A stretch of 64,000 nt of DNA from Dyella sp. AtDHG13 (GTDB taxonomy: Bacteria; Pseudomonadota; Gammaproteobacteria; Xanthomonadales; Rhodanobacteraceae), in the NCBI RefSeq assembly GCF_003201105.1, contig NZ_QICJ01000015.1, positions 1 to 64,000 on the forward strand, read 5' to 3'. The notes under the pieces were generated by a model, which was not told the DNA's origin, made no database searches, and saw only the letters and a list, made by a program, of their open reading frames with translations. The position numbers and the translations under genes are program-made. This document shows, piece by piece, positions 15,963 to 19,509 of this stretch. Every line of letters begins with the position of its first letter. The first letter of the stretch is position 1.

Positions 15963-16271
15963 CTACCACCATGGCCGCACCAGCAGCGCGGCGATAGCCA
16001 GCACCAGACCCAGCAAGCCGACAAGGCGGCTGCCCCGGCCACTACGTCCCGCCGGCATGGCACGAAACGCACGATAGACGTCCGAAAGGGTTGCGTTGCT
16101 ACTCACGTTGGGAAGAGCCCCAAAGACTTCGTACCATCCGAAGCACAGCATTGCGCAGGACAACAGGTAGGACCGCGGCGGTTCAAAAAGCAGCAGCGAA
16201 ACAGGCCCCATCACCAGCGCGACGAAGACGCCCCAGACCTTGTTCCATGCGAGTCCGCGTTCCTTTTCCAC
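15963..16271 (-). CDS. Small hypothetical membrane protein
   Basis: A 102-residue protein with three hydrophobic stretches: VWGVFVALVMGPVSLLLF, YLLSCAMLCFGWYEVFGAL and LVGLLGLVLAIAALLV. The start is a GTG preceded by a GGAAGGGG site. It follows the next hypothetical gene by 23 bp and is probably in the same transcript. No family is recognised. A short connector SDVYRAFRAMPAGRSGRGSR between the last two segments is likely cytosolic. Confidence 0.6.
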   Translation of the reverse strand: MEKERGLAWNKVWGVFVALVMGPVSLLLFEPPRSYLLSCAMLCFGWYEVFGALPNVSSNATLSDVYRAFRAMPAGRSGRGSRLVGLLGLVLAIAALLVRPWW

Positions 16272-16294
16272 GCCCTATCGCCCCTTCCGCATCA

Positions 16295-16642
16295 TCAACC
16301 GAAGTGGCTGTGAATAAGCTTCACCACCGTCTGACGGTCATGCTCAATCCCCGACGAACGATATTGCTCCGTATCCCGACTCGCCCAGCCATCGATCACC
16401 CGAACACCCGCCGCGCAACCATCCAGCTTGATGGCAAAGATGTGCGCCCCCGTCCAACTGCGATGAAAGTGCAGCCAGCCATCCTCGAAGTAGATGAACC
16501 ACCTGTCATCCATATCGACGGGAACATGGCCACCGCGCATGCGGGCGGCGACAGCGTCCGAGAAAATATCCGGCACATCCAGGCGTTCGCGCTTTTCGGG
16601 AGCGGGTAACGTTTTCCAGGAAGCGCGGGTGACTGGGTCCAT
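16295..16642 (-). CDS. Hypothetical protein (WFIYFEDGWLHFHRSWTG motif)
   Basis: A 115-residue soluble protein. It has a distinctive aromatic core at about 47-66 (RWFIYFEDGWLHFHRSWTG) followed by HIFAIKLDG and RVIDGWASRDTEQYRS, which reads like a compact beta-rich domain. An AGGAG site lies nine bases before the ATG at 16640-16642, which supports a real gene. The order with its neighbours (SUKH-like gene upstream, membrane protein downstream, all on the minus strand) suggests a small accessory operon. No function can be assigned. Confidence 0.6.
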   Translation of the reverse strand: MDPVTRASWKTLPAPEKRERLDVPDIFSDAVAARMRGGHVPVDMDDRWFIYFEDGWLHFHRSWTGAHIFAIKLDGCAAGVRVIDGWASRDTEQYRSSGIEHDRQTVVKLIHSHFG

Positions 16643-16719
16643 TATTCAAAGCTCCTGCGGGTATCCGGCGATTGACCACCGATCCGAGGTCCGTTTTAGG
16701 TCGAAAGCAGACGGCTGAT

Positions 16720-17361
16720 CTACGTCCGCTCGCTGTCGATCTCGTCCAGTTCATCGGCCCACATTGCCCCCTCATCGAGAGCCGTTGGATCGTAGGATCG
16801 CAGGTGTTCGCGCATCGTATCCACTGCCTCCCTCGGCACCTGTCCATATACGAAAGTAGAGCCGTTGCGCTTGGCGGCCTCTTGAATCATCTCGCGAAAT
16901 CGCAAAAGCGTCTCGGACAGGGCCAAGACGTCCTTGTTGATATAACAAGGTCGAAAGCCATCGTCATGGTTCAGATAAACAACTGATCCTGACAGCGCTA
17001 TGGCGATAGAGTCCCCGGAACCGTTGGAGCCAATGACGTAAAAGTTGCCGAATTTGCCGTCTTTCAATCGCCATAGCTGATCGACGGTTGGGAGGGGACC
17101 TGACTTGGGTGGCCGAAAGTCTAGGAAAGGCGCAACCGATGCGGGTAACCCAACATCTCGAAGGAAAGCCGCGGCCGTTGTGGACAGACCATGATGGATA
17201 CCGATGTGCCTCGCCAGGCACATGTGTGGAAGCCATGGGCGCGATTTGCACCCATAACTGCTGACATCCGCCCCGCGCGTCGCCACAGCGCCAATCCGCA
17301 GCGCTTCATAAGAATACTGACACCGACAGGAGTCACTGCACTGACGAGTGCGATGAGACAT
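16720..17361 (-). CDS. SUKH-superfamily (SMI1/KNR4-like) immunity-type protein
   Basis: The region from about residue 55 to 180 fits the SUKH fold: GLSTTAAAFLRDVGLPASVAP, then LWRLKDGKFGNFYVIGSNGSG, SIAIALSGSVVYLNHDDGFRPC and INKDVLALSETLLRFREMIQ. SUKH proteins usually act as immunity proteins for polymorphic or contact-dependent toxins. The start is uncertain: ATG at 17359-17361 has GGAG four bases upstream and gives 213 residues with a Cys-rich head, while ATG at 17221-17223 gives 167 residues and starts nearer the domain. No cognate toxin gene is seen nearby, so it may be an orphan immunity gene. Confidence 0.6.
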   Translation of the reverse strand: MSHRTRQCSDSCRCQYSYEALRIGAVATRGADVSSYGCKSRPWLPHMCLARHIGIHHGLSTTAAAFLRDVGLPASVAPFLDFRPPKSGPLPTVDQLWRLKDGKFGNFYVIGSNGSGDSIAIALSGSVVYLNHDDGFRPCYINKDVLALSETLLRFREMIQEAAKRNGSTFVYGQVPREAVDTMREHLRSYDPTALDEGAMWADELDEIDSERT

Positions 17362-17444
17362 CTTGCTCCAACCGTCTCTCACAGTCTGAAGAGCTCGGAT
17401 GCGCATGGTTAGCGCACCAATCAAGTTCGGATATGGAGAAAGCT

Positions 17445-18008
17445 ATGAAACTTGCGCTATTAGTAGCGGCTGGACTCGCTTTCGGCTCATGTTCTCTGAG
17501 CACATTGGCTCAAACTGCGATTACTGGCGAAAGCCAACTGGTCAATCAATTCCTGACACGCGAAAGCACGGACAACCAGCTTGCGTTACAGTTTGCACCA
17601 ATACATTCCGTGCTCGATGTAAATCGGATATTGCTCTCGTCAAAGGTATCGGGAACAGCGTTCGACAAGCTCTCTCCTGCCGCCAAGCAGCGATTCCTGG
17701 CCAGTTTGACCTTCAATGAAAATGGCCTCACAGGCTTTAGCTACGCCGATATCGAGCGGGAACTAACCCCTAGCGATATCTATCAGTTGCTGAGCCTATT
17801 CGGCGTTCAACGACTGGCGCCGACCGCTTCCAAGGGGGCTCGAATCGATACCGCAACTGATGCTTTGATTCATGCGTCACCCATGACCTGCGGCCCGGGC
17901 CACACCGTGGATCCCGGCAGTGGTGGCTGTGACCACGATGGGTATCGCTGTCAGTCTCGCGGAACCTGTCTCCAAACGATGCAGGCGATCTGTACCAGTA
18001 ACTGCTAA
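17445..18008 (+). CDS. Secreted hypothetical protein with Cys-rich C-terminus
   Basis: A 187-residue exported protein. A signal peptide MKLALLVAAGLAFGSCSLST..LAQ is followed by a helical middle region (AKQRFLASLTFNENGLTGFSYADIERELTPSDIYQLLSLFGV). The last about 40 residues contain six cysteines in a Gly/Asp-rich setting (TCGPGH, GGCDHDGYRC, GTCLQ, AICTSNC). The ATG at 17445 has GGAG seven bases upstream; an ATG at 17433 is also in frame. The C-terminus ends exactly on a Cys. It lies 60 bp before a secreted thioredoxin-fold gene, so disulfide chemistry may link the two. No family is recognised. Confidence 0.7.
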   Translation: MKLALLVAAGLAFGSCSLSTLAQTAITGESQLVNQFLTRESTDNQLALQFAPIHSVLDVNRILLSSKVSGTAFDKLSPAAKQRFLASLTFNENGLTGFSYADIERELTPSDIYQLLSLFGVQRLAPTASKGARIDTATDALIHASPMTCGPGHTVDPGSGGCDHDGYRCQSRGTCLQTMQAICTSNC

Positions 18009-18068
18009 TTTCCCATGGAATCGATGCACGCCGCTTCGTTGGCGTGCATCTTCAAACAGGAGTAAGCG

Positions 18069-19041
18069 GTGATCCGACATTTCACCAAGCATGCGCTAAC
18101 GGCCAGCATGGTCTTGGCGCTGACCCTTGCCACAGGAACCGCATTGAAGGTGACGGCCGCGCCGGCATCTGTCGCCGATACAACGACCATCCAAGACGCT
18201 TACAACCAAATTAATGCGTTGAATCTCGACGCCGTCGATGTGCCGATCAAGGCGCAACGTATCGCTGCGTTGTACGAAGAAAAAATCTCGCCATTTCAAA
18301 TAGCCGGAAAGCTTGCGAAATTGGGCATCGATGACCTCACTTTGATCTTCCGGGCCGCAGATACAGCTTCGTTCTACCTAGTTGAACAGCGGTACGTCAC
18401 GGACATGGAGCTTGATTTGCAAGCTCTGGAGTCGCGTGGCGCAGCCAAGGACGTCGACTTTGCTGAGTTGTACGGCGCATACATAGAACTACGGCAATTC
18501 GATAAGGCAGTGAGCCTGAAAGATGCGCACCCCGGCATGACAGTTCCTGCGCTGCCCAAGCTCTCAATAATGGACATGAGCCCCGGCGAGCAAGAAGTGC
18601 TCCAGGTGTCGCCCATCGACGGCTCTGTTTCAAGTGCTCACGTTGATGTTAGTAAAGGCCCCATGATCGTCGTCGTGGGACACCCGTATTGTCATTTTTT
18701 TTTCGCAAAATGCTGTCGCGGTCATTGAAGGCAATCCAACACTCAACGACGTTTTTCGTAGACGCGCTATTTGGATCACTCCACCCTCGCGAAACCTGGA
18801 CAACCAAGCCGTTCAAGAGTGGAACGACAACCACGCTTCCATCAAGTTCGATATCGCCTACTCCCGAGACTCCTGGAAAGGCATATCAACCTGGGAGACA
18901 CCGGTTTTCTATTTCTATCGCGACGGAGTGTTGAAGGACACCGTGATCGGCTGGCCCAAAGGCGGAAACCTTCCCGCACTGCAGAAGGGCATGCAGTCGA
19001 TCGGCATCTTGAATGCGAATGCGGCAAAAACAAGTAATTAG
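18069..19041 (+). CDS. Secreted thioredoxin-fold protein, frame broken at a T9 run
   Basis: From the GTG at 18069 (AGGAG upstream) a signal peptide leads into a helical domain, then PMIVVVGHPYCHF, where a thioredoxin-like fold begins. In the deposited frame translation stops at 18726-18728. One base of offset after the nine T at 18695-18703 opens a further 110 or so codons to a TAG at 19039-19041: NAVAVIEGNPTLNDVF, SRDSWKGISTWETPVFYFYR and GVLKDTVIGWPKGGN. These supply the missing cis-Pro strand (TPVFYFY) of the fold. Eight T would fuse the frames. The break could be a recent mutation, a sequencing error in the homopolymer, or polymerase slippage. Only one Cys lies at the expected active-site turn. 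Confidence 0.7.
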
Positions 19042-19509
19042 CATTGCCTATTCGGAGTCGGCTCAGCGGGCCTGAGCGCAGAGTTCCGCCCCATCGATAC
19101 ACCTGTGGAGCGAAGCCACCATACAATCGCACTCGCAGTTTCACTGGGCTCTATCTGAGCCAGTTGTTGATGTCCGCCCTGTCCGCGGAAGCGGATCCAT
19201 ACACCAGCGCCCAAGAGCAACCCGGTGGTCGAATGCATGCTGCCCCATCTTGCATCGATAACCAGGTGCATTAACGAAAAATGCGAATCCAACGGCTACA
19301 CCAGTCACGGCGTGCGGTTTCAGTGCTCTCTCCGAGCTCCCAAGACGGGAAGCGCCCCATGGGAGTCAACCTGCGGATGGCGAATCGGGAAAGTGTCGCG
19401 TCGATTCCCATTGTGCGTCACGACGGGCTCGACACCACGGACGACCTGCCGCGGGACGGTCGTTGCGTCACCGACTATTGGTTCTGAATCGCGTTCCTTG
19501 AGGGAGCGT
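19042..19509. other. Gene-poor gap at the right end of the accessory region
   Basis: Open frames here are short and overlap the LysR gene or lack initiation signals. A 68-codon plus-strand frame at 19281-19487, ending GRCVTDYWF, has no ribosome-binding site that I can see. No terminator, repeat or RNA gene is recognised. The segment could hold decayed remains of an accessory gene. Confidence 0.4.

What the first reader, a model, noticed from the sequence alone, without database searches (positions are those of the whole stretch)
17445..19041. Secreted Cys-rich protein paired with a secreted thioredoxin-fold protein
A signal peptide protein ending in a six-Cys tail lies 60 bp before a second exported protein whose C-terminal half has a thioredoxin-like core (PYCHF turn, TPVFYFY cis-Pro strand). 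The pair could form an oxidative-folding cassette in which the second protein shapes or reduces the first. I know of no described system with this pairing.
Basis: inference. Interest (0 to 1): 0.6.

Follow-up and report, generated by a model that had tools for sequence, protein, structure and literature searches.

The report
Secreted Cys-tail protein with thioredoxin partner
Two neighbouring genes for exported proteins, one ending in a cysteine-rich tail and one carrying a thioredoxin-like domain with a single active cysteine, belong to an uncharacterised pair that is usually found together and in many relatives is fused into one protein that lacks the tail; in this genome the second gene is broken by a frameshift.

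Summary
The pair is real, but gene B is not intact here. Gene A (17445-18008) encodes an exported 187-aa protein with a six-Cys tail. Neither matches a Pfam family above cut-off. In a 398-genome sample of the order, A occurs in 74, B in 99, both in 69; 75 of 81 A places are fused to B or directly upstream of it, and two fusions have reversed order. B combines TPR-like helices with a ResA/TlpA/CcmG-like thioredoxin domain: its Cys is conserved in 111 of 112 relatives, its cis-Pro in 112 of 112, but only 7 have a second Cys. A four-Cys tail occurs in 42 of 44 separate A places beside B, 0 of 46 fusions and 0 of 4 A cores without B. Separate pairs are GC-poor and 23 of 40 have a stem-loop between the genes. 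Best reading: one exported thiol-chemistry module in which the tail is the handle through which separate A engages B's monothiol site. Here the module is probably inactive.

The parts
17445..18008 (+). Gene A: exported 187-aa protein; signal peptide, small mostly helical domain, Cys tail
   Evidence: profile matches in 52 of 233 family genomes, this one included; predicted structure pLDDT 82.6, pTM 0.74
17889..18005 (+). Six-Cys tail (residues 149-187); the last four Cys (169, 175, 183, 187) lie on or next to a predicted beta hairpin
   Evidence: the four Cys are invariant in 6 of 6 rows of A1 and 15 of 15 rows of A5, but 13 rows of A5 were picked to have at least four Cys
18023..18050 (+). 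Stem-loop between A and B: 10-bp perfect stem (18023-18032 with 18041-18050)
   Evidence: sequence; energy -20.0, z -3.8
18069..18728 (+). Gene B as read: GTG start, signal peptide, helical (TPR-like) part, start of the thioredoxin-like domain, then a premature stop after the frameshift
18695..18703 (+). Nine-T run that shifts B's frame inside the C-H-F-S active-site motif
18697..19041 (+). Rest of B's thioredoxin-like domain in a different frame (cis-Pro strand TPVFYFY), open to its stop
17139..17264 (+). 41-aa ORF with a second copy of the Cys tail (DHDGYRC...C...IC..C) without the A domain; probably a relic of a duplicated A
   Evidence: overlaps the start region of the SUKH-4 gene on the other strand

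Best explanation
A and B are the two halves of one exported thiol-chemistry module found in the order to which the window belongs. B is a TPR-like helical domain joined to a ResA/TlpA/CcmG-like thioredoxin domain with one catalytic Cys (mostly CxF[S/T/A]) and no resolving Cys, so it should capture a thiol or disulfide partner in a mixed disulfide (hold or isomerise it) rather than cycle as an oxidase. A is a small domain that works with B; its four-Cys hairpin tail is the handle by which a separate A is bound or processed at B's active site. When A and B are one polypeptide the handle is not needed and is absent. Shown: linkage, fusion in both orders, conserved Cys and cis-Pro, tail only in separate genes. 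Inferred: a mixed disulfide between tail and B, location outside the cytoplasm, and A made in excess of B because of the stem-loop. In this genome B is frameshifted, so the module is probably recently inactivated.
For: Linkage: order sample of 398 genomes, A in 74, B in 99, both in 69, Fisher p 7.5e-47; of 81 A places 36 share an open frame with B, 39 lie upstream on the same strand, 6 are alone. Reversed fusions (B then A) in G390 and G342. On a tree of 112 B proteins the fused label needs 8 changes (gains or losses), at least 4 forced by well-supported branches (quick tree). Tail motif in 42 of 44 separate A places next to B (38 genomes; window's own not counted; one of the 42, G122, is a tail-only ORF), 0 of 46 fused, 0 of 4 A cores without B. 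The two tailless separate cases are G474, which looks like a frameshifted fusion, and G086. Active-site Cys 111 of 112, cis-Pro 112 of 112; CxxS 79, CxxA 17, CxxT 7, CxxC 7, CxxV 1 of 111. Fold: VIA-align Z about 9 to 10.6 to ResA, CcmG and other thioredoxin-like chains over 120-130 residues; helical part matches TPR chains at Z under 9. Stem-loop at z <= -2 in 23 of 40 A-B gaps against 4 of 40 upstream of A and 4 of 40 in A coding sequence.
Against: B's Cys is conserved in fused and A-less forms too, so it must do something besides engage the tail. B without a detected A occurs in 30 of 99 genomes; 26 such loci were checked for an upstream tail and one, G423, has it. G086 is a separate pair without a tail. 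Joining A to B by deletion could remove the tail mechanically; only the two reversed fusions, one tight clade, speak against that. 37 of the 45 fused rows of the tree fall in one 39-row group, so 0 of 46 is far from 46 independent events, and the changes may be losses as well as gains of fusion. 17 of 40 gaps show no significant stem-loop. No complex could be predicted and no thiol state measured. Fold scores are modest: no Foldseek match at E <= 0.001 (best 0.0039), and the TPR-like part is within what unrelated helical models reach (note). The modelled B is a relative's, not the window's.
Confidence: 0.45

Rival explanations
1. A is a secreted disulfide-rich effector or bacteriocin-like protein (N-terminal domain plus Cys-hairpin cargo) and B is its dedicated foldase or holdase; fused forms are derived versions that have lost the cargo. 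This is closest to the first reader's idea.
For: Separate pairs are patchy (A in 3 and B in 5 of the 20 genomes of the genus seen) and GC-poor relative to their flanks in 29 of 29 loci; one pair lies beside an integrase and a UmuD-like gene on a viral-collection contig. The stem-loop between the genes suggests more A than B. A cores without B lack the tail in 4 of 4 cases. The sublancin operon gives a precedent (passages).
Against: Fused tailless A-B proteins are common (46 examined) and keep both the A core and, in the 45 aligned, B's Cys, so A core plus B has a function without cargo. No gene besides A/B was shared by more than 4 of 33 loci. No activity is known.
Confidence: 0.25
2. Conflict module: A's tail is harmful to other or own cells and B gives immunity; A cannot persist intact without B, while B can persist alone.
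For: A core without B is tailless (4 of 4), whereas B without A is common. Mobile signature as above. A SUKH-4 gene, a family named as immunity proteins, lies next to the window pair.
Against: Many cases are A-B fusions with a conserved B active site, unusual for toxin-immunity pairs. SUKH-4 was not a shared neighbour. A conserved catalytic-type Cys and cis-Pro are unexpected in an immunity protein.
Confidence: 0.1
3. B is an ordinary envelope redox or scaffold protein; A's tail is a self-contained disulfide hairpin with no link to B's chemistry, and fusions lack it because the deletion that joins the genes removes it.
For: In 34 of 36 fusions of the order sample A lies N-terminal to B, where a joining deletion would remove A's C-terminus. 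The tail is predicted as a small hairpin.
Against: Reversed fusions also lack it; A cores without B lack it.
Confidence: 0.2

Closest known systems
TlpA/ResA/CcmG-type envelope thioredoxin-fold proteins
   Same: Predicted fold of B's C-terminal domain, apparent export, conserved active-site Cys and cis-Pro
   Different: No CxxC in 104 of 111 relatives; no Pfam hit; extra helical domain and a partner A
CxxS trapping proteins of the PDI group (TMX5 with CRFS; ERp44)
   Same: One Cys followed by x-x-S in a thioredoxin-like site; TMX5 forms mixed disulfides with clients (passages of PMC11443168). That ERp44 itself has CRFS is recalled.
   Different: Eukaryotic, ER; no homology claimed; no mixed disulfide has been shown here
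Sublancin operon with BdbA/BdbB (SP-beta prophage, Bacillus subtilis)
   Same: Small Cys-containing secreted product encoded with thiol-disulfide oxidoreductases on a mobile element (passages of PMC6391423)
   Different: Bacillus glycopeptide with a leader-processing transporter and a glycosyltransferase; no such shared neighbour of A-B was seen
DsbL-DsbI-ASST operon
   Same: Specialised thioredoxin-fold enzyme encoded with its periplasmic client (passages of PMC3526765)
   Different: Enzyme client and a redox partner DsbI; called a dithiol oxidase system in a title in that paper's reference list

Membership tests
TlpA/ResA/CcmG-like thioredoxin-fold group | Thioredoxin fold | tested here: met
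   Model of the G172 fused relative, residues 312-450, Z about 9-10.6 to ResA, CcmG and other thioredoxin-like chains, though no Foldseek match at E <= 0.001; cis-Pro stretch aligns to thioredoxin h, E 8e-4. A relative, not the window protein, was modelled.
TlpA/ResA/CcmG-like thioredoxin-fold group | CxxC active site | tested here: not met
   CxxC in 7 of 111 relatives; window motif begins C-H-F and then shifts frame
TlpA/ResA/CcmG-like thioredoxin-fold group | Match to a curated Pfam family | tested here: not met
   No thioredoxin-type Pfam family for the window pieces (E up to 1) or for ten relatives (E up to 0.1)
Dedicated oxidoreductase-client operon (DsbL/ASST, BdbB/sublancin) | Enzyme and client genes adjacent and co-inherited | tested here: met
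Dedicated oxidoreductase-client operon (DsbL/ASST, BdbB/sublancin) | Enzyme changes the client's disulfides | not testable with these tools
   needs biochemistry
CxxS trapping proteins (TMX5-like mode) | Single catalytic Cys, C-x-x-S | tested here: met
   79 CxxS and 104 non-CxxC of 111 relatives
CxxS trapping proteins (TMX5-like mode) | Stable mixed disulfides with clients | not testable with these tools
   needs non-reducing gels or mass spectrometry
Bacteriocin operon of the sublancin kind | Dedicated transporter or leader-processing gene nearby | tested here: inconclusive
   No gene family besides A/B was shared by more than 4 of the 33 loci compared; the ORFs were not annotated one by one

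The most novel reading that the evidence does not exclude
The four-Cys hairpin is a reversible redox tether: it docks a separate A onto B's monothiol thioredoxin site, doing through a disulfide what gene fusion does through a peptide bond. The fused state has changed at least four times on the B tree, one fused clade has the reversed domain order, and the tail is absent whenever A and B are one chain or an A core has no B.
Probability: 0.25. Interest if true: 0.7.

Novelty: new variant of a known kind. Interest (0 to 1): 0.5.

Why it matters
If right, this is an uncharacterised two-protein thiol module with a built-in natural experiment: dozens of separate pairs with a Cys tail and dozens of tailless fusions. 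That makes it directly testable whether a Cys-rich tail serves as a covalent, redox-switchable connector or client of a monothiol thioredoxin domain outside the cytoplasm, and it would give a hypothesis for two protein families without a Pfam model in the searches made here.

Tried and rejected
Rejected: B as an intact gene in this window. B as a Dsb-type oxidase or Trx-type reductase (no second Cys in 104 of 111). SUKH-4 as part of the module (not a shared neighbour among 33 loci). The Acidobacteria hit L039: only a 33-residue match, and no A-B pair was recognised among the ORFs listed around it. Plasmid and phage collections: no match for one B relative each. PHROGs: nothing for A; a weak hit of unknown function for one B relative (E 0.0024). 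A linker pair CxxxxC-PES as the fused form's replacement for the tail: present in some fused proteins, absent in others. PDB matches for the A model: none usable; this does not show a new fold. A His-Pro just before the Cys is common in B of separate pairs (24 of 41) and A-less B (17 of 25) and rare in fusions (3 of 45), but it may simply follow descent and was not used as evidence. Literature: searches (thioredoxin, CxxS, monothiol, Xanthomonadales, periplasmic; first 10 of 75 listed; thioredoxin-like, Lysobacter, cysteine-rich, gene fusion, secreted protein; 2 listed; CXXS motif, TlpA, tetratricopeptide, Xanthomonas, uncharacterized; 0) showed no title about this pair; (ERp44 terms) gave 0. 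For these only listings and abstract starts were seen; of three papers passages were seen. The taxon names in these searches were guesses; no call names the window's organism. Unreliable detail: with 45-base windows and simple shuffles G035's gap has a strong stem-loop (z -5.2), with 40-base windows it does not (z -1.1); the count used is one search's.

Full report
What is there. Gene A (17445-18008, +) encodes 187 aa: a signal peptide by eye, a small domain and a six-Cys tail. Sixty bp later gene B starts with GTG at 18069. The break is at a run of nine T (18695-18703). It is the longest A/T run in the 64-kb window (next 7). At the same site 111 of 111 relatives with the active-site Cys have T runs of 5 or less. 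Everything downstream of the break is still open, so the damage looks recent; a sequencing error, phase variation or slippage cannot be excluded. In the same genus G005 carries B only in pieces, with a stop inside one of them.

Families. Neither A nor B matches a Pfam family above its cut-off; the window pieces match no NCBIfam family above its cut-off either. With single-sequence queries, 10 of 61 genomes (own included) have A and 13 of 61 have B. With profiles, 52 of 233 genomes of the family have A, 62 have B, and 50 have both. In an even sample of 398 genomes of the order the numbers are 74, 99 and 69 (Fisher p 7.5e-47). Of 81 A places in that sample 36 share B's open frame, 39 are on the same strand upstream of B, and 6 are alone. 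B without a detected A occurs in 30 genomes, a few of them fragments; of 26 A-less B loci examined for an upstream tail one, G423, has it in the same open frame. In a sample of 398 genomes of the phylum only 3 had matches, all in the same order. One pair was found on an IMG/VR contig beside an integrase.

Structure. The A model (pLDDT 82.6, pTM 0.74) is mostly helical and ends in a hairpin that carries most of the last four Cys; no usable PDB match. A model of a natural A-B fusion from G172 (pLDDT 85.2, pTM 0.68) gives the A domain, a helical TPR-like region (about 172-295) and a thioredoxin-like domain (about 312-450) whose best matches are ResA, CcmG and other thioredoxin-like chains at Z about 9 to 10.6, although no Foldseek match reaches E 0.001. 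In 112 B proteins the catalytic Cys is present in 111 and the cis-Pro in 112; only 7 of 111 have a second Cys. The one exception, G030, has no detected A.

The tail pattern. A four-Cys tail motif is present in 42 of 44 separate A places next to B (38 genomes, window not counted), in 0 of 46 fused proteins, and in 0 of 4 A cores in genomes without B. One exception (G474) looks like a frameshifted fusion; the other (G086) is a tailless separate gene whose neighbour on the tree is a fusion (G081). One of the 42, G122, and a further place without B, G123, are tail-only ORFs. Fusion status changes 8 times on the B tree, at least 4 times across well-supported branches (quick tree, careful search unfinished; changes may be gains or losses, and 37 of 45 fused rows fall in one group). 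Two fusions have B first and A second (G390, G342); their A part ends freely at the C-terminus yet has no tail. This is the main argument that tail loss is not just a by-product of the joining deletion; it rests on one clade.

Other features. In 23 of 40 separate pairs the gap between A's stop and the B match holds a stem-loop stronger than dinucleotide shuffles (z <= -2), against 4 of 40 just upstream of A and 4 of 40 inside A. In the window it is a 10-bp perfect stem at 18023-18050. A likely meaning is more A than B. Separate pairs have lower GC than their flanks in 29 of 29 loci (mean difference -9.2 points); fused genes do not to the same degree (4 loci, mean +0.4 points; 27 loci with short flanks, mean -1.3 points). 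The window pair has 53.3% GC against 66.0% for the window. No third gene is shared by more than 4 of 33 compared loci. So separate pairs behave like mobile two-gene cassettes and many fused ones more like resident genes.

Interpretation. The linkage, fusion and reversed order are strong evidence that A and B act together. The conserved Cys and cis-Pro argue for thiol chemistry; lack of a second Cys argues for holding, trapping or isomerising a partner. The tail's presence only in separate genes suggests that it is what B, or B's active site, engages. A mixed disulfide is inferred, not shown.

Noticed in passing
17139-17264 (+): A 41-aa ORF carrying only a Cys-tail copy, overlapping the 5' end of a SUKH-4 gene on the other strand; tail-only ORFs also occur in G122 (59 codons, just upstream of B) and G123 (38 codons, no B detected by the profile search).
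   Followed up: partly
16720-17424 (-): SUKH-4 immunity-type protein (PF14435, E 1.5e-13) in the same low-GC patch as A-B; no polymorphic toxin gene was looked for.
   Followed up: no
16000-19500: GC drops to 53-60% in a 66% GC window, which points to acquired DNA.
   Followed up: partly
L241 1754-5477: An A-B pair with a 4-Cys tail beside an integrase and a UmuD-like gene on a contig of the viral collection.
   Followed up: partly
L218, L219, L220: Fused relatives of one genus (G295, G309, G317) have CxFC, a dithiol site, in place of CxFS.
   Followed up: no
L112, L168: Second or partial A copies before one B (G145, G466), a sign of duplication of A.
   Followed up: no
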